Positions 6,497-59,283 of a stretch of 64,000 nt of DNA are shown here, one piece after another. The notes under the pieces were generated by a model. The model did no database searches and was not told the DNA's origin. It worked only from the letters and a program-made list of their open reading frames with translations. Positions within the stretch are counted from its first letter, which is position 1. Every line of letters starts with the position of its first letter. The translations under genes and the position numbers were made by a program. The stretch is from a virus, in IMG/VR virus record IMGVR_UViG_3300048999_000166, positions 58,430 through 122,429 of that record, one strand, 5' to 3'.

Positions 6497-6592
6497 AATA
6501 TTGAGTTATAGGAGCCCGGACTCGCATCCCATCGGTGTTAGTTCCTCCGCCCGGGCGGAGAGGCACCGTGTGCCTGGGGCTAGTCCTAGGTA
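6497..6592 (-). other. Spacer with decayed tRNA-like element between units F and G
   Basis: This inter-unit gap is much longer than the others (10-21 nt). It holds two strong hairpins, GGCAC-ACG-GUGCC and CUCCG-CCCGGG-CGGAG, flanked by UAGGA and UCCUA that could form an acceptor end, and a poor T-arm-like segment (GGGAUGCGAGUCC). It looks like a degenerate tRNA or a unit that lost its Y stem. Confidence 0.4.
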
Positions 6593-16377: not shown

Positions 16378-16815
16378 ATGATTCGCAAGCTTTGTACGGC
16401 CGTTGCCACCGCCGCGGTCCTGGTTGGCGGGACCCTGGGCATGGCTGGCGTGGCCAACGCCGCGACTCCGGCCCCCACCAACTTCGGTGGCATCGGTAAC
16501 GGCAACATCGTGTGCTCCCTGACCAGCAACATCCTGAGCGGCAGCAACTGCGGTTCCGGTCGCGGCCACCGGCTCGGCGGGCACTTCCGTGGCGGGCGCT
16601 GGGACGGCGACCAGACCATCATCCTGAACGGCGCTAACTACGGCGTCAGCGACTGCGGCTGCGGCACCGACTCGGTGGTCCTCACCCCGCAGGTGGTGCA
16701 GGTCCCGACCGTCGTGCGGGGCATCGAGACCGGCGACGGTAGCTGCGGCCTGTCCGGCGCCTACTTCGGCCGCCTCGGAGGCCTGCGCGGCATCCACCGT
16801 GGCCTGCACTTCTAA
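16378..16815 (+). CDS. Secreted Gly-rich protein with signal peptide
   Basis: 145 aa, GAGAGG upstream. Signal peptide with hydrophobic core AVATAAVLVGG and a cut after ANA (~28). The mature part is Gly/Asn/Arg-rich with several cysteines (CSLT, NCGSG, DCGCG, SCGLSG). It has the architecture of actinobacterial surface proteins such as chaplins, but no conserved chaplin domain can be claimed. It precedes a sortase gene; no LPxTG-type motif is seen. Confidence 0.7.
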   Translation: MIRKLCTAVATAAVLVGGTLGMAGVANAATPAPTNFGGIGNGNIVCSLTSNILSGSNCGSGRGHRLGGHFRGGRWDGDQTIILNGANYGVSDCGCGTDSVVLTPQVVQVPTVVRGIETGDGSCGLSGAYFGRLGGLRGIHRGLHF

Positions 16816-17959: not shown

Positions 17960-18327
17960 ACCATCACCCACCGCCGCCGCCTCCGCATCACCCCCCGGAA
18001 CCACCGAGTTGGAATCCCTTCACGAACATCAATCACCGGCTTTCGGCGATTGAGGAGAAGCTCACCCAGATTGGAGTCTCGATGGCCACCCAGGCCGATG
18101 TTGATGCTCTTACCCAGGCCGTTTCCGACCTGACCGCCAAGGTGACTGCCGACGACAGCCAGCTCCAGGCTGGGGTCGCGGCGGTCCAGGCGTGGATCGC
18201 TAACCAGCCGGCTGATGTGGATGTCAGCGGGCTGCAGGACGCGGTCAGCCAGCTCTCCGCTGGCGTGGACGCGGTCGGCGCGGACGCCGCGAACGTGGCG
18301 AACCTCGTACCGCCGGCCACGAGCTGA
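17956..18327 (+). CDS. Pro/His-rich N-terminus plus coiled-coil protein
   Basis: 123 aa. The first 17 residues are nearly all Pro and His (HHPPPPPPHHPPEPP); residues ~25-115 form a heptad-like helix (ADVDALTQAVSDLTAKV and similar). ATG overlaps the previous stop. It lies directly before the endolysin; a role as a minor virion or lysis-associated protein is possible but unproved. Confidence 0.65.
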   Translation: MNHHPPPPPPHHPPEPPSWNPFTNINHRLSAIEEKLTQIGVSMATQADVDALTQAVSDLTAKVTADDSQLQAGVAAVQAWIANQPADVDVSGLQDAVSQLSAGVDAVGADAANVANLVPPATS

Positions 18328-18407
18328 AGTTAGTTTCATGATGGACCGCCAGCCGGTCGGGTTCTGTGGTGGTACCCGGCCGGCTGGCCCCTTCTACGGG
18401 GAGCGCC

Positions 18408-23426: not shown

Positions 23427-23637
23427 GGTCCCTCGCATGAAATTCGCGGTGCACGGGCCGCAGCGACCCGAGCACCATCGCGCCGCAGAGGCGGCACGGC
23501 CAAAGGTTGAGTTCTTGTTCGAGGATCTCCAGGCCGAGGGCTTCCCGGATCTCACGCTCCTCGTCGGTCTCGATCTTGTTCGGGACCTTGACCGTCAGGA
23601 ACCAGTAGAAGGTCTCGTCGCACACCCGTAGTGCCAT
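23419..23637 (-). CDS. 72-aa single zinc-finger protein
   Basis: An N-terminal aromatic strand (CDETFYWFLTVKV), an acidic helix (ETDEEREIREALGLEILEQE) and a C-terminal CRLCGA...HREFHARDHD which can bind one zinc in C2H2 style. Likely DNA- or protein-binding adaptor. Confidence 0.65.
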   Translation of the reverse strand: MALRVCDETFYWFLTVKVPNKIETDEEREIREALGLEILEQELNLWPCRLCGAMVLGSLRPVHREFHARDHD

Positions 23638-23885
23638 CAGGCCGGCGGGTCTTCCGTTACCGGCGCTCCCAGGTACACCGTGACCGCAGCGGCGCCTTGA
23701 GGGCGGTCGAGGTCGCGCTCCGCCATCCAGGCCACCTCCAGCACGCGACGAGGGTGTTCGATGTCGAGGTCGTTGATGTACACCAGCTCACCCTTGCGCG
23801 GGATGAGGCTCATCCGACGTGGCGCCGAACAGCGCTGGTCCTGCTGGTCGCGGTAGCGGAAGATCACGAACGCGTTCTCGCTCAT
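23637..23885 (-). CDS. 82-aa protein, unknown function
   Basis: Beta-rich sequence (NAFVIFRYRDQQ, GELVYINDLDI, RRVLEVAWMAE, AAVTVYLGAP) that could form a small barrel. Overlaps the upstream gene by 4 bp. Not recognised. Confidence 0.6.
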   Translation of the reverse strand: MSENAFVIFRYRDQQDQRCSAPRRMSLIPRKGELVYINDLDIEHPRRVLEVAWMAERDLDRPQGAAAVTVYLGAPVTEDPPA

Positions 23886-24130
23886 CGTGGGTCTCTCATG
23901 CTGCGGAGCCGAATAACGGATCGGACGATGAGCGCGATGGCGGGCAGGAGAGCGAGCGCGGCGTAGGTGTAGCCCAGCGGGCTCTTCGCGTGAGCGATGA
24001 GCCCCGCCCCCAGCACCCAAAGCGGGATCGTGATCACCAGGTTGAATATCAAGTCCGCGTGTTCTCCGCTCGCTTCGTTGTCCATGCTGCGCACCAACCG
24101 AAGCTCCGGCACCTGGCGGGGAACGTTCAC
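23882..24130 (-). CDS. 82-aa two-pass membrane protein
   Basis: GTG 24130 overlaps the preceding stop (GTGA). Two hydrophobic segments, LIFNLVITIPLWVLGAGLI and YTYAALALLPAIALIV, with a basic end RSVIRLRSMRDPR. Confidence 0.65.
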   Translation of the reverse strand: MNVPRQVPELRLVRSMDNEASGEHADLIFNLVITIPLWVLGAGLIAHAKSPLGYTYAALALLPAIALIVRSVIRLRSMRDPR

Positions 24131-27864: not shown

Positions 27865-28391
27865 CAGACCTCTCCCTTCTTGATGGCCTCGGCGACCGCA
27901 TCGAGCGTCGACCGATCGACGGCCTCGCAGAGTGCGTTGATCCAGGGCACCATGTTCTCGGTGCCGTCCCAGTCCCTCCAGCGGATCGCTAGCTTGACGG
28001 CCGCCTCGATGATCGGCTTATCGCGCTCCAGCTTCTGCAGCGCGGCGTGCAAGCTCTCATCGAGCGCCGTGGCCTGTTGCTCCCACTCGGCGTTGGTGTG
28101 CACTTCCTCGTCCGTCGCGGCCGCCTGCTCCTCGTGGCACGGGCACTCGCAGATCTCGCCAGCCGGGTCCGAGCACTCGTCGTGGTAGCCGATCGAGCAC
28201 TGGCGGTTGCGACAGTGGTCATACGGGCGCCGCTCGGTCCGATCGGCGCCGGTGAGCCGGTCGGTGTACTGCGCGTCGGTCTCGCCCGGCAACCCCGGCG
28301 GCATCTCCGGGTAGTAGCGGGCGCGCACCACCATCATCGGTTGCTCGGCGCGGATGTGGATGCCCACGCCGGGCACGGGCTGCTCAGTCAT
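27864..28391 (-). CDS. 175-aa protein with Cys-rich centre
   Basis: ATG 28391 has GGAGATCGC upstream and overlaps the preceding stop. Residues ~60-85 hold CRNRQCSIGYHDEC and CECPCHEE, a zinc knuckle-like cluster; the C-terminal half is helical. Unknown function. Confidence 0.6.
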   Translation of the reverse strand: MTEQPVPGVGIHIRAEQPMMVVRARYYPEMPPGLPGETDAQYTDRLTGADRTERRPYDHCRNRQCSIGYHDECSDPAGEICECPCHEEQAAATDEEVHTNAEWEQQATALDESLHAALQKLERDKPIIEAAVKLAIRWRDWDGTENMVPWINALCEAVDRSTLDAVAEAIKKGEV

Positions 28392-35988: not shown

Positions 35989-36027
35989 ACTACTTCAAAC
36001 TGTCCAGACTGGGCAGCTTGAAGTAGT
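35989..36027. repeat. 39-bp palindrome related to the one inside the ParB gene
   Basis: ACTACTTCAA, then CTGTCCAG-A-CTGGGCAG, then TGAAGTAGT. The core and flanks match the 51-bp palindrome at 54796-54846 (TACTTCA, CTGTCCAG, CTGGACAG, TGAAGTA). Intergenic position suggests a protein-binding site or transcript hairpin. Confidence 0.8.
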
Positions 36028-36041
36028 TCACACCGAGAGGC

Positions 36042-36075
36042 GCGGAATTTGGTGCAGGTACGCACCAAATTCCGC
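36042..36075. repeat. Perfect 14-bp inverted repeat after the STAS gene
   Basis: GCGGAATTTGGTGC, six-base loop, GCACCAAATTCCGC, three bases from the stop of the STAS gene (36078). Could be a terminator without T-tract, or an operator next to the 39-bp palindrome. Confidence 0.8.
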
Positions 36076-36077
36076 AC

Positions 36078-36419
36078 TCATCCAGCGTCGACACCGTGGT
36101 TCTCCCGTACCCGTTGGTAGATCTTGAACAGATCAGTGAGGGGCTGAGCGGTGATGTCGCCGGGCAGCGGCACCAGGGTGGACTCGGTGAGCAGCAGTCC
36201 CTCTCGGACACTCAACATCGAAGAGGCGTACGACAACAGCTCCGACAGTCCGGGGTCGAGATCGTAGGCGTCCACCAGATCGACCAGGAGATCGGTGATA
36301 CCTGAATCGAGCAGGGTCTCCACCTGGGAGCGCAACTGGTGCATGGAGTGAACGTCCAGTCGTCCGGAGACCTGAATATTCGCCCGTCTATCGTCGATAA
36401 ACACCGTTATAGCCGCCAC
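36078..36419 (-). CDS. STAS-domain (anti-sigma-factor antagonist-like) protein
   Basis: 113 aa; GTG 36419 with GGAGAG ten bases upstream is taken as start, GTG 36455 is possible. The fold pattern is strand TVFIDDRRANIQVSGRLD, helix VHSMHQLRSQVETLLDSG, strand TDLLVDLVDAYDLDPG, helix LSELLSYAS, as in SpoIIAA. The usual phosphorylated Ser after the second strand is replaced by DPG, so partner switching by phosphorylation may be lost. It may bind a host anti-sigma factor. Confidence 0.75.
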   Translation of the reverse strand: MAAITVFIDDRRANIQVSGRLDVHSMHQLRSQVETLLDSGITDLLVDLVDAYDLDPGLSELLSYASSMLSVREGLLLTESTLVPLPGDITAQPLTDLFKIYQRVRENHGVDAG

Positions 36420-36515
36420 GTCTTTCACTCTCCAATCGAGTAGGACGGCGGCCACCGGTTGGCTCGCCGCCAGGGTCTAGGGCGGTTCGTCAAGGGTTCC
36501 CGGGATTTGCCCGGG

Positions 36516-42759: not shown

Positions 42760-43001
42760 CCGTGCTCAACGCCATCACCTGGTTCTTCATCCTCACCACC
42801 TGGCAGATGAACCTCATGACCCTAGCGGTCGGGTGTATCTCGCAGGCGGAGTTCTCGGCCACGATGGGGGACATGGAGGGCATCTACATCAACCTGCGCA
42901 GGGCGCGCAGGTTGCGGCGCTTCGGGTGGCCGTGGGTGCGGCTCGTGCCCTACTTCCGGGAGCGGCTCTACCCACCCAGAGTGGAGGCGAAGAAGTGGTA
43001 G
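42756..43001 (+). CDS. 81-aa protein with N-terminal membrane helix
   Basis: GTG 42756. LNAITWFFILTTWQMNLMTLAV is hydrophobic; the C-terminus is basic (NLRRARRLRRFGWPWVRL). Overlaps the ParB-like gene start. Confidence 0.6.
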   Translation: MTVLNAITWFFILTTWQMNLMTLAVGCISQAEFSATMGDMEGIYINLRRARRLRRFGWPWVRLVPYFRERLYPPRVEAKKW

Positions 43002-43873
43002 CGATCGAGTTTTCGGAGGGACGAGTGCTGGTAGGGGCTGAGATCGTGCACCCAGCGGCGAAGATGTTCCCGACCGGCGACGAGGAGTACGTGCACGAGC
43101 TGGCCGCGAGCATCAAGATCGAGGGTCAGCTCACCGCGATCGTGCTCACCCCCGACGGCCAGATGCTGGAGGGCCGCGGGCGGTGGGCGGCCTGCAAGAT
43201 AGCGGGCATCACGCCGGTGACCAGGGTCGAGCGAACGGTCAACCCCTGGAACTACATCCTGGCGTCGAACTCCGAGCAGCTGAAGAACCTGCCGGAGTCG
43301 CAGCGAGCGATGGTGCTGGGGCAGGTCCCGATGTTGGGCTTCGTCGGGACCCCCACTGGGGGTGTAGGTGAACCCCCGTCGCGACGCGGGTTGGAGGAGC
43401 TGACCGGCGTCAGCTCGACCACCATCTACCGCGCGCAACTCATCCACCAGCACGGGGTGCCGGGACTCATCGAGCTGACCGCTGAGGGGTCGGTTCCGTT
43501 GACCACCGCGTGTCGGATGAGCGAGGCCGACGTCGCGGTGCAGCAGCGCTTCGTCGAGCGCGTACGCGCTGGTGAGAACCCTCGTTTCATCGCCAAGCCC
43601 ACCGAGCGCAGGCTCGCACGCATCCCGAAGGAGCCGCGCTCCCCCGCCCGCGCCCCGATGCGCAACCGCCACCGCTTCGTGCGCAAGCAGACCGTCACGC
43701 AGTTCCTGGACACGCTGTCCTCGCTGAGCACGATCATCGACGCAGCCGAGGCGCTCGACCCCGGCATCACCCCCGAGGAAGCCCGCGCTTTCCTCTACGA
43801 ACTGTCCCGTAAGCACATCGCGTATCGACGTATCTGCGATCTACTCAAAGAGCGGAAGGAACAGCAGTCATGA
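42995..43873 (+). CDS. ParB-like nuclease/CTPase domain protein 1
   Basis: 292 aa from GTG 42995 (GGAGG eight bases upstream). ParB N-terminal pattern: YVHELAASIKIEGQLTAIVL, then E59-GRGR63 in MLEGRGRWAACK, then a HTH region (LEELTGVSSTTIYRAQLIHQ) and a basic linker. Phage ParB-like proteins act as regulators or nickases rather than partition proteins. No ParA is in the window. Followed directly by a second member. Confidence 0.85.
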   Translation: MVAIEFSEGRVLVGAEIVHPAAKMFPTGDEEYVHELAASIKIEGQLTAIVLTPDGQMLEGRGRWAACKIAGITPVTRVERTVNPWNYILASNSEQLKNLPESQRAMVLGQVPMLGFVGTPTGGVGEPPSRRGLEELTGVSSTTIYRAQLIHQHGVPGLIELTAEGSVPLTTACRMSEADVAVQQRFVERVRAGENPRFIAKPTERRLARIPKEPRSPARAPMRNRHRFVRKQTVTQFLDTLSSLSTIIDAAEALDPGITPEEARAFLYELSRKHIAYRRICDLLKERKEQQS

Positions 43874-52583: not shown

Positions 52584-52748
52584 GCCGCCAGTATGCGCTA
52601 GGTGACTGGCTGGCCGCCAGTACCCGTTCTCTATCTAGCCTGGTGTGCGATCTGGAAGACTGCCTTGCGAAATACGGAGATATTCTGCTACCTTGTGTTG
52701 ACGCCCAGGAAAGTAGACGGGCTACACACACACAAAGGAGCAAGTTCA
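52584..52748 (+). promoter_or_regulatory. Leader of the ParB-like gene pair
   Basis: TTGACG at 52698-52703 with a possible TACACA -10 about 25 bases downstream is a weak promoter match. AAAGGAG precedes GTG 52749. The divergent TOPRIM gene starts at 52583, so its promoter is also here. Confidence 0.4.
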
Positions 52749-53732
52749 GTGGCTACACACATCACCGACCACAACAAGCTGCCCGACGAGGCTCGCCAGA
52801 CCGCCAACCTGATCAAGCGTCTCGGTTTCGACTGGGCGCTCGACCAGCGCTACCCCACCCCCGACGTCAGCAAGCGCGTCCAGGTCAGGCAGATCGCGCA
52901 CTACGCGCCGCCCGCGGAAGTCACGAAGTACGCGGCCGCGATGGCCCGCAACGACGCCTTCCCGCCCATCGTCGTGACCAAGGACGGATACCTGCTCGAC
53001 GGCAACACCCGCGCGGAGGCCGCCCGGCGCAACAAGTACCCGACGCTGCCGGCCTTCATCCTGGACAGGGAGTACGAGGGCGCCAACGACGCGGTACTGC
53101 GTCGGATGCACCTGCTCGGGGCGGGCTTCAACGTCCGCAACGGTCGCGGCATCGACCGGGCCGAGCAGATGAGCGCGGTTCTCGCGGTGGGCACCGGCAC
53201 CGACTACGACGCGAGCCGCATCGCGGCCCTGCTCGGGGTGTCGGCGGGCTTCGTCAACGGTGTGCTGTCCGAGCAGAAGGCCCGTGAACGCGCGGAGCGC
53301 ATCGGGGTGCACGTCAACGGTTCGGTGCCGTCGAGTCAGCTGCGTCGCCTGGGCCAGTCCGGGCTCAACGATGAGCCGTTCGTGGCCCTGCTCAAGCTCG
53401 CCCAGGATGCGGGACTCTCGGTCGGGGAGATCAACGAACTGATCAAGAAGGTCAAGGACGCCGGCAGCGACGCCGCCGCCCTTGAGCTGCTCTCGAAGGT
53501 CCGCGACGACCGCAAGGAGCAGATCGCGGAGTACTCCGCGATCGGTAAGTCACGTCCGGCGCACAGCTCGCAGCTGCGCCAGCGGCTTGGCTTCGTGCTG
53601 GGCTACGAGGACAATGCACGCGCCCTGGTGGAGCTGAACCCCACCCTGGCCGACACCCACACCGATGTGCTGACCCGGGCGATCGCGGTACTGACCGCCG
53701 CGCGGGCCTTCCAGGAAGAGAAGAAGGACTGA
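52749..53732 (+). CDS. ParB-like protein 3
   Basis: 327 aa from GTG 52749. ParB domain with YLLDGNTRAEAARRNKYPTL (DGNTR in place of DGxRR) and a HTH region (YDASRIAALLGVSAGFVNGV). Long helical C-terminus. Followed two bases later by ParB-like protein 4. Confidence 0.85.
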   Translation: MATHITDHNKLPDEARQTANLIKRLGFDWALDQRYPTPDVSKRVQVRQIAHYAPPAEVTKYAAAMARNDAFPPIVVTKDGYLLDGNTRAEAARRNKYPTLPAFILDREYEGANDAVLRRMHLLGAGFNVRNGRGIDRAEQMSAVLAVGTGTDYDASRIAALLGVSAGFVNGVLSEQKARERAERIGVHVNGSVPSSQLRRLGQSGLNDEPFVALLKLAQDAGLSVGEINELIKKVKDAGSDAAALELLSKVRDDRKEQIAEYSAIGKSRPAHSSQLRQRLGFVLGYEDNARALVELNPTLADTHTDVLTRAIAVLTAARAFQEEKKD

Positions 53733-53734
53733 CC

Positions 53735-55258
53735 ATGGCACAGCCCACCATCGCGGCCGCCCGGGTTAGCCGACTCACCGGACGCGGTCGTAATGACGAC
53801 CGCGGTGGTGGGCTGGCCCTGGTTGAGCTGTTCGAACCCATCCTGCGCACCCTCCACGAGAAGGGTGACGCCTCCGAGGAGACCCTCATCGCGGCTGTTC
53901 GCTCCGGGCAGCTCGGTCAGAAGACCGCCCGGCTGCAGGCCATCTACGACAGCGCGAACCCCTGGTCGGCGTTCATCACCGACGCGCTGGAGCAGCTCAT
54001 CGCCCGGGGATTTGTGACCGCGTACGCCTCCGGGCGCTACGCGGTCACCCCGAAGTTCTCCCCCGGCAAGGCGCTGACCGTGATCACCGCCGGTGGCGGA
54101 CAGCAGCCGGTCCGAGTCACCGTCCACACCGACGAGCAGCGCGCTGAGCGTGCCGGTGAAGCGACCTCGATGTACATCACGGAGCTGGCCAGCGAGCTGG
54201 ACGCGCGCCGCGGCGGCATCCGCCCGCTCGATCTGCGGCGCGTCGAGGAGCTGACCGCCTCGATGGACGCGTTCGGGTTCCGCAAGGAGTCGATCTTCAA
54301 CATCCTCAAGGACCAGCACGGGCGCGTACTCGATGGCCGCCACCGAATCGCCGCGGCGGAGAAGCTCGGCATCGAGTGGGACAACAAGCTCTACGTGCAG
54401 ACGGTCAAGGTCGCCGATGACCGGGAGGCGCTCGCGCTGACCTGGACGGCCAACGTCGGGCAGGCGGGCTGGACAAAGTCTGATCTTGATCGCATCACCC
54501 GCGCGCTCGGCGGAGAGTCTCCGGCGACGGTGCTCGGCATCAGGGTGCAGATCCGCAACCTGCTGCTCGACCGACTCGGTCGCGTGTCCGACCGTGAGGT
54601 CGCTCGGCTCGTCGGGTGCTCGGCCACCACGGTCGGGGCCTACCGCTCCGAGATGGAGGTGGCCGGCGACCTCGTCCCGTATGACCCAGAGGGGGAGAAG
54701 CGAGCCGCCATCCGCGCTGAGATCGAACGCGACCCAGAGGCGAGTGACTACTCGATCGGGAAGACGTTGGACGTCTCGCAGAACACGGTGAAGGCGGTTC
54801 GAGTACTTCAAGCTGTCCAGTCTGGACAGACTGAAGTACTCGAACCGGAGTCCGCCTCCGTGCCCGAGCCCGCCGCGCCCGCGAAGCCGTGGTCGAAGGC
54901 GCAGCTGATCGACAGAGAGTTGCTCGCGGACCCGGACCGCTCCGACAAGGAGATCGCGGCTCACCTGGGCTTCGAGGGCCCGAGGGCCAGCAGCTCGGTG
55001 TGGCGTCGGCGCAAGAAGCTCGAAGGCCAAGACCCGTACAACGGCTCGATCGAGGGCCCCAGGCCGAAGCCTGAGCCCGTCAAGGAGGTGTCGGCACCCG
55101 AACCTACCCCGGCCTCTCCGGACTCGCTGGAGCTGGCCTGGACCGAGGACGCGCGCGTGCTGGCCGCGCAGCTCTCGGCGTGGATGACGAACGAGAACGT
55201 GCTGCTAGAGCTGGGTACGCGTCTCGTCACCACCGCCCGACGGAGGGGCGCGAGCTGA
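53735..55258 (+). CDS. ParB-like protein 4, with internal palindrome
   Basis: 507 aa. Residues 30-110 look like a winged-helix domain; D200-GRHR204 (RVLDGRHRIAAAEKLGIE) is the ParB motif; further HTH-like segments at ~288 (VSDREVARLVGCSATTVGAY) and ~335 (ASDYSIGKTLDVSQNTVKAV), and a third near 410 (SDKEIAAHLGF). Codons ~354-371 (LQAVQSGQTEVLEPE) are a near-perfect palindrome in DNA. Likely a DNA-binding regulator or replication accessory. Confidence 0.85.
   Translation: MAQPTIAAARVSRLTGRGRNDDRGGGLALVELFEPILRTLHEKGDASEETLIAAVRSGQLGQKTARLQAIYDSANPWSAFITDALEQLIARGFVTAYASGRYAVTPKFSPGKALTVITAGGGQQPVRVTVHTDEQRAERAGEATSMYITELASELDARRGGIRPLDLRRVEELTASMDAFGFRKESIFNILKDQHGRVLDGRHRIAAAEKLGIEWDNKLYVQTVKVADDREALALTWTANVGQAGWTKSDLDRITRALGGESPATVLGIRVQIRNLLLDRLGRVSDREVARLVGCSATTVGAYRSEMEVAGDLVPYDPEGEKRAAIRAEIERDPEASDYSIGKTLDVSQNTVKAVRVLQAVQSGQTEVLEPESASVPEPAAPAKPWSKAQLIDRELLADPDRSDKEIAAHLGFEGPRASSSVWRRRKKLEGQDPYNGSIEGPRPKPEPVKEVSAPEPTPASPDSLELAWTEDARVLAAQLSAWMTNENVLLELGTRLVTTARRRGAS
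54796..54846. repeat. 51-bp near-perfect palindrome inside the ParB-like gene
   Basis: Arms GGTTCGAGTACTTCA and TGAAGTACTCGAACC are exact complements, around CTGTCCAG-T-CTGGACAG. Only two pairs in the whole site mismatch. Core and inner flanks match the intergenic site at 35989-36027. Confidence 0.92.
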
Positions 55259-59228: not shown

Positions 59229-59283
59229 TCTAGTACTGTCCAGACAGATCCCCCGTTCACTAAATTAGGAGCAACCAACGATC
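59229..59283 (+). promoter_or_regulatory. Operon start with half-copy of the palindrome core
   Basis: TACTGTCCAGACAG at 59233-59246 resembles the CTGTCCAG core of the 54796 and 35989 palindromes. TAAATT and TTAGGAG follow before ATG 59284. It may be an operator for a ParB-like or HTH protein. Confidence 0.45.

What the first reader, a model, noticed from the sequence alone, without database searches (positions are those of the whole stretch)
54796..54846. 51-bp palindrome inside a ParB-like gene, with a second copy 18.8 kb away
Seen: GGTTCGAGTACTTCA / TGAAGTACTCGAACC arms around CTGTCCAG-T-CTGGACAG lie within codons ~354-371 of the ParB-like gene. The intergenic 35989-36027 site has the same inner design (TACTTCA, CTGTCCAG, CTGGGCAG, TGAAGTA), and a partial core is at 59233. 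Inferred: a binding site for one of the four ParB-like proteins, perhaps a centromere-like or autoregulatory site; or a mobile palindromic repeat.
Basis: partly seen in the sequence, partly recalled or inferred. Interest (0 to 1): 0.75.

Follow-up and report, generated by a model that had tools for sequence, protein, structure and literature searches.

The report
Self-encoded DNA target in ParB-like gene
A phage gene for a DNA-binding, ParB-like protein carries inside itself a long DNA palindrome, with two more copies elsewhere in the phage, that is most likely the protein's own landing site; the same arrangement turns up in ParB genes of unrelated phages and plasmids.

Summary
The 53-bp palindrome at 54795-54847 and its relative at 35989-36027 are real and far beyond chance. 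A third copy lies outside the window (record position 28247-28283, between a phage tRNA-Phe gene and the portal gene). The three share a 35-bp core at 31-32 of 35 positions. The "partial core at 59233" is not distinguishable from chance. The window is part of a 122-kb phage with a 127-bp terminal repeat.

Four close relatives have, at the tRNA/portal site, palindromes of similar size but different sequence inside near-identical flanks.

ParB-like genes chosen by protein similarity alone repeat the pattern. Seven of twelve phage genes, and two of three found in distant relatives of this phage, hold a palindrome beside the helix-turn-helix (HTH) that synonymous shuffling never matched; its sequence differs each time. 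On Persicobacter plasmids such palindromes flank parAB as multi-copy, parS-like sites, twice with a copy inside parB. Recognition-helix similarity predicts site similarity (partial Mantel p=0.016).

Best reading: three parS-like sites of the ParB-like protein whose gene holds one of them. No ParA was found, so regulation or DNA organisation is likelier than partition. Binding is inferred, not shown.

The parts
54795..54847 (.). Site C: 53-bp near-perfect palindrome in the linker after the second HTH of the ParB-like protein; proposed parS-like site
53735..55258 (+). ParB-like protein, 507 aa: ParB-like domain about 163-271, HTHs about 280-309 and 322-356, palindrome at codons 354-371, a third three-helix HTH about 388-429; proposed cognate binder
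35989..36027 (.). Site B: second copy, intergenic, between the end of minus-strand gene 36078-36455 and the start of the next minus-strand gene
53522..53543 (.). 22-bp perfect palindrome GATCGCGGAGTACTCCGCGATC inside the neighbouring ParB-like gene 52602-53732; possible own site of that protein, but not significant alone (25 of 200 synonymous shuffles reach it)
43371..43392 (.). 22-bp near-palindrome AACCCCCGTCGCGACGCGGGTT just before the HTH of ParB-like gene 42995-43873; suggestive only (26 of 100 synonymous shuffles reach it)

Best explanation
The palindrome is a DNA target of the ParB-like, multi-HTH protein encoded by the gene that contains it (53735-55258). The protein, as a dimer, binds site C in its own gene and the copies A (between tRNA-Phe and the portal gene) and B (intergenic). 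From there it regulates or organises phage DNA: autoregulation at C, and control of the late and accessory transcripts at A and B. Sites and recognition helices change together, which explains why relatives carry a different palindrome at the same place. Shown: the three copies, and the recurrence of palindromes beside the HTH in ParB-like genes. Inferred: binding by this protein, and what the binding does.
For: 1) Three copies with 31-32/35 shared positions, palindromy kept, including a two-sided change TACTTCA..TGAAGTA to TGCTTCA..TGAAGCA. 2) Twelve phage ParB-like/HTH genes picked by protein similarity only: 8 hold a palindrome scoring 10 or more at about codon 115-130 beside the HTH, 7 of them reached by 0 of 60 synonymous shuffles; arm sequences and encoded peptides differ. 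3) In distant relatives of this phage, ParB-like genes found by homology hold one beside the HTH: G012 16762-16785 (0/200 shuffles) and 104071-104092 (8/200), G018 18310-18335 (0/200). Across 22 contigs, 5 of 6 ParB-like genes against 30 of 814 other genes carry an internal palindrome scoring 10 or more. 4) Plasmids with a ParB of this subgroup, next to parA where annotated: pPP8 and JZB09-Plasmid15 have the palindrome inside parB plus 1 and 2 copies outside, the layout seen here; pPP3, pPP4, pAT3 and JZB09-Plasmid2 have 3, 5, 2 and 7 flanking copies. 5) Recognition-helix identity predicts site identity (rho 0.31, p=0.007; controlling for the N domain p=0.016; N domain alone rho 0.02). 6) Precedent: parS-359 of B. 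subtilis lies within parB (PMC4442127).
Against: No binding data. The ParB families where the pattern is clearest are only distantly related to this protein (shared ParB-like domain and HTH). No close homolog of this exact gene could be found, so co-change of gene C and site A could not be tested in the close relatives. Most phage examples have a single copy. Two other ParB-like genes of this phage have palindromes not beyond codon-usage expectation, and 4 of the 12 homologs have none. The helix/site correlation rests on 16 hand-collected sites without full phylogenetic correction.
Confidence: 0.6

Rival explanations
1. The palindromes are operators of another phage DNA-binding protein, such as an immunity repressor, dispersed like the stoperators of cluster A mycobacteriophages; the location in a ParB-like gene is incidental.
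For: The phage carries a tyrosine integrase, so it is probably temperate; sites are dispersed and differ between relatives at one locus, as expected for immunity specificity.
Against: Only three sites, one inside a ParB-like gene; palindromes beside the HTH are common in ParB-like genes. Stoperators, from memory, are short and asymmetric.
Confidence: 0.14
2. RNA hairpins: transcript processing, stability or termination signals whose stem matters and whose sequence is free to drift.
For: Predicted stems of -27 to -40 kcal/mol with z-scores of -6.3 to -8.4; site A follows the tRNA genes and keeps its stem while changing sequence in relatives.
Against: No consistent U-tract after the three copies; mismatches in the stems show no excess of G-U wobble by eye; does not explain the shared sequence of A, B and C, the place beside the HTH in ParB-like genes, or the multi-copy sites around parAB in intergenic DNA.
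Confidence: 0.1
3. A small mobile palindromic element, in the manner of Rickettsia palindromic elements or REP sequences, copied to three places including a coding linker.
For: Three similar copies; insertion-tolerant linker; shared core with unrelated flanks.
Against: No IS200/REP-type Y1 transposase in the record; no exact match to the core pattern in the genome or viral collections beyond this record; palindromes of ParB-like genes differ in sequence from gene to gene while keeping their place, which a copied element would not do.
Confidence: 0.11

Closest known systems
Type I ParABS partition (ParB bound to palindromic parS), pNOB8-like ParB subgroup on Bacteroidota plasmids
   Same: ParB-like domain plus HTH; palindromic sites in several copies; a copy inside the parB gene on pPP8 and JZB09-Plasmid15
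   Different: No ParA family match in the phage record; sites 19 to 66 kb apart in record coordinates rather than clustered; the site is longer (35-53 bp)
Bacillus subtilis parS-359 inside the parB (spo0J) gene
   Same: A parS site lies within the coding sequence of its own ParB (PMC4442127)
   Different: Chromosomal parS is, from general knowledge, a 16-bp sequence conserved across bacteria; here the palindrome differs between close relatives. The canonical GTTTCACGTGAAAC is present in this phage as a separate site
Dispersed centromere of phage-plasmid N15 and dispersed KorB operators of RK2 (from memory; N15 seen only as a citation)
   Same: A few palindromes scattered through the element, some in genes, bound by a ParB-family protein that also regulates
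   Different: Those have a partner ParA; here none was found and binding is untested
parABS of extrachromosomal mycobacteriophages such as RedRock (PMC7157519)
   Same: Actinobacteriophage-type ParB and parS loci
   Different: RedRock parS loci are eight direct repeats of an 8-bp motif, not long palindromes

Membership tests
ParABS partition system | ParA-type ATPase gene, normally next to parB | tested here: not met
   PF13614 and PF01656 find nothing in the record
ParABS partition system | ParB-family protein: ParB-like N domain plus HTH | tested here: inconclusive
   Several PHROG ParB-like partition families match residues 163-271 (best E 1.8e-5) and a Pfam HTH matches 280-301; Pfam ParB_N does not reach this gene
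ParABS partition system | CTP-binding motif and CTP-dependent spreading | not tested
   not examined
ParABS partition system | Palindromic site in more than one copy, one in or near parB | tested here: met
   Sites A, B and C; binding itself not shown
Self-sited ParB-like gene (the rule proposed here) | Palindrome beside an HTH, beyond synonymous shuffles | tested here: met
   Score 20, 0 of 200 shuffles, best shuffle 10
Self-sited ParB-like gene (the rule proposed here) | Encoded protein binds the palindrome | not testable with these tools
   needs gel shift or footprint
REP/RAYT or IS200-type palindromic elements | Y1 transposase in the genome | tested here: not met
   PF01797 finds nothing in the record
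Intrinsic terminator | GC-rich stem followed by a run of T | tested here: not met
   Only site A has a mildly T-rich tail; B and C have none

The most novel reading that the evidence does not exclude
A general rule: ParB-like and related HTH genes of phages and plasmids carry their protein's own hypervariable target palindrome inside the coding linker next to the DNA-binding domain, so that recognition helix and site travel together in recombination as one specificity cassette. A ParB-like gene's target could then be read off its own sequence.
Probability: 0.42. Interest if true: 0.78.

Novelty: new variant of a known kind. Interest (0 to 1): 0.64.

Why it matters
Targets of the many orphan ParB-like proteins in phages are unknown. 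If their genes carry the target inside them, targets can be predicted from sequence alone and tested at once, and a way of keeping a DNA-binding domain linked to its site through phage mosaic recombination becomes visible. It could also bear on how many co-resident plasmids of one host keep distinct partition specificities, as on the Persicobacter plasmids seen here.

Tried and rejected
Pattern CTTCANNCTGTCCAGNCTGGACAG in genome contigs and viral contigs: no hits. Blastn of the site against phages and plasmids: only chance matches. tblastn of the ParB-like protein: nothing but a weak hit to gp95 of Mycobacterium phage Bobby, an Omegavirus, whose alignment ends where the palindrome begins; no palindrome of score 8 or more in that region of Bobby. 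The genome-contig scan with the terminase returned only distant, mostly proteobacterial relatives, not used. Relatives of the B and C neighbourhoods in viral contigs: none found. Pairing of the left arm with the tRNA-Phe anticodon loop was considered and dropped because relatives do not keep it. The intragenic-palindrome idea came from a palindrome pattern scan, which is biased, so that gene (L187) was left out of the counts and only homologs picked by protein similarity were counted. Peptide similarity QSGQ between L187 and site C was judged an effect of the search pattern. AlphaFold on a 291-aa fragment was weak (mean pLDDT 50) except for the third HTH.

Full report
What is there. The window is positions 58430-122429 of a 122,429-base virus record whose first and last 127 bases are identical, so the phage genome is probably complete. 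It has large-terminase and portal genes, phage tRNAs and a tyrosine integrase. The palindrome named in the finding is real: arms 54795-54820 and 54822-54847 pair at 24 of 26 positions around one base. It lies at codons 354-371 of the 507-aa ParB-like ORF 53735-55258. The related site at 35989-36027 is also real. A third copy lies outside the window at record position 28247-28283, directly after a phage tRNA-Phe gene and before the portal gene. I call the three A (28.2 kb), B (window 36.0 kb) and C (window 54.8 kb). Their 35-bp cores agree at 31, 31 and 32 positions pairwise, and the exchange TACTTCA..TGAAGTA to TGCTTCA..TGAAGCA in A is a two-sided change that keeps the symmetry. Weaker copies were not found; the string at 59233 is a single 11-base match without a partner arm.

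Chance. Ten shuffled versions of the genome gave 1-7 palindromes scoring 10 or more and a best of 13; the real genome has 42, and C scores 20 and A 18. Shuffling synonymous codons inside the ParB-like gene never produced more than 10 (0 of 200 reached 20).

Relatives of the phage. A terminase search found close relatives. Where they carry the same tRNA/portal junction (G001, G002, G003, G006) the flanks are nearly identical, but the palindrome between them has different arms of about the same length. For example, G000 and G001 have 95.8% identical portal proteins over 480 residues, yet only 15 of 25 central positions of the palindrome agree. The symmetry is kept; the sequence is not. More distant relatives without the tRNAs show no such palindrome there.

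The clue that gave the direction. A degenerate scan found palindromes inside genes of unrelated phages, one of them a ParB-like gene (L187). Because that scan selects palindromes, I used it only as a lead and fetched twelve homologs of that protein by protein similarity alone. Eight carry a palindrome scoring 10 or more in the linker between the ParB-like domain and the HTH; seven exceed all 60 synonymous shuffles. Arm sequences differ from gene to gene, and the encoded peptides often have little in common. So the DNA symmetry, more than the peptide, is what is kept.

The same holds among distant relatives of this phage. The ParB-like genes of G012 (two) and G018 (one), found by homology or Pfam, each hold a perfect palindrome beside the HTH; two of the three exceed all 200 synonymous shuffles and the third is reached by 8 of 200. 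Over 820 genes of at least 120 aa in 22 contigs, 30 of 814 other genes but 5 of 6 ParB-like genes have an internal palindrome of score 10 or more. The fourth ParB-like gene of our phage (43870-44769), in which I see no HTH, has none. The palindromes in the other two (43371-43392 and 53522-53543) are not beyond codon-usage expectation on their own.

What the palindromes are. On Bacteroidota plasmids the same ParB subgroup lies next to parA. There, palindromes occur as repeated sites flanking parAB: three before parA on pPP3, five after parB on pPP4, two on pAT3 and seven upstream on JZB09-Plasmid2. On pPP8 and JZB09-Plasmid15 there is one inside parB plus one and two outside. That last layout, one in the gene and two elsewhere, is what our phage shows. 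Such repeated palindromes next to parAB are what parS sites look like. If they are ParB targets, proteins with similar recognition helices should have similar sites. Over 16 genes the correlation is rho 0.31 (permutation p=0.007), and p=0.016 after controlling for similarity of the N domain, which by itself predicts nothing (rho 0.02). This is modest, rests on hand-collected sites and has no full phylogenetic correction.

Mechanism. I take C, A and B as parS-like sites of the protein encoded around C. The palindrome lies between the second HTH and a third one that AlphaFold models with confidence (residues about 388-429), a linker that should tolerate extra codons. No ParA was found, so a KorB-like regulator or DNA organiser is likelier than a partition protein: feedback on its own gene at C, and an effect on the transcripts crossing A (portal and late genes) and starting near B. 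These last steps are inference.

Known and new. A parS inside its own parB gene is known in B. subtilis (parS-359, PMC4442127), and dispersed palindromic ParB sites are known from N15 and RK2 (from memory). What I did not find described in the open-access library is the recurrent placing of hypervariable palindromes beside the HTH of ParB-like genes across unrelated phages and plasmids; most subscription papers were not searchable. I therefore file this as a new variant of a known kind.

Noticed in passing
record position 23510-23533 (34.9 kb before the window); also G001 about 13070 and G006 about 8554: Canonical bacterial chromosome parS GTTTCACGTGAAAC inside a palindrome in an intergenic region, kept in two relatives. 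The phage may attract the host ParB; no phage ParA was found.
   Followed up: partly
record position about 23700-23920; G001 12.7 kb, G003 11.9 kb, G006 8.9 kb: Intergenic region rich in TGATCA repeats with hairpins such as TTGTTGATGATGTCCACACATGGACATGATCAACAA, whose arms also change on both sides in relatives; looks like an origin or operator cluster.
   Followed up: no
L011 2546-2582 and L012 4974-5010: A hairpin between tRNA-Tyr and tRNA-Phe has its 7-nt loop inverted between two close relatives (ATTCCAG versus CTGGAAT), as template switching at a palindrome would give.
   Followed up: no
L015 about 6510-6575 (G006): The tRNA-Phe gene seems to have lost its anticodon arm and is no longer called by ARAGORN, while the palindrome after it remains.
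   Followed up: no
L193 6505-6580, minus strand: Three tandem palindromes with two-sided changes encode KLDTVSNL-KTETVSDF-KSDTVSDL in the linker of an XRE/LexA-like repressor gene; the rule may extend beyond ParB-like genes. L180 14375-14401 is a possible further case after an HTH-like region.
   Followed up: partly
G014 1042-1073 and 2143-2178; G015 30028 and 30948: Distant relatives have two copies, about 1 kb apart, of another palindrome family with exchanged ends GAATTC/GATATC.
   Followed up: no
L014 about 6017 onward: The terminase match stops at residue 336 of 386 and is followed by sequence reading like an intein.
   Followed up: no
window 36042-36075: A second perfect 14-bp hairpin directly after the stop of minus-strand gene 36078-36455, next to site B; probably an ordinary terminator-like hairpin.
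   Followed up: no
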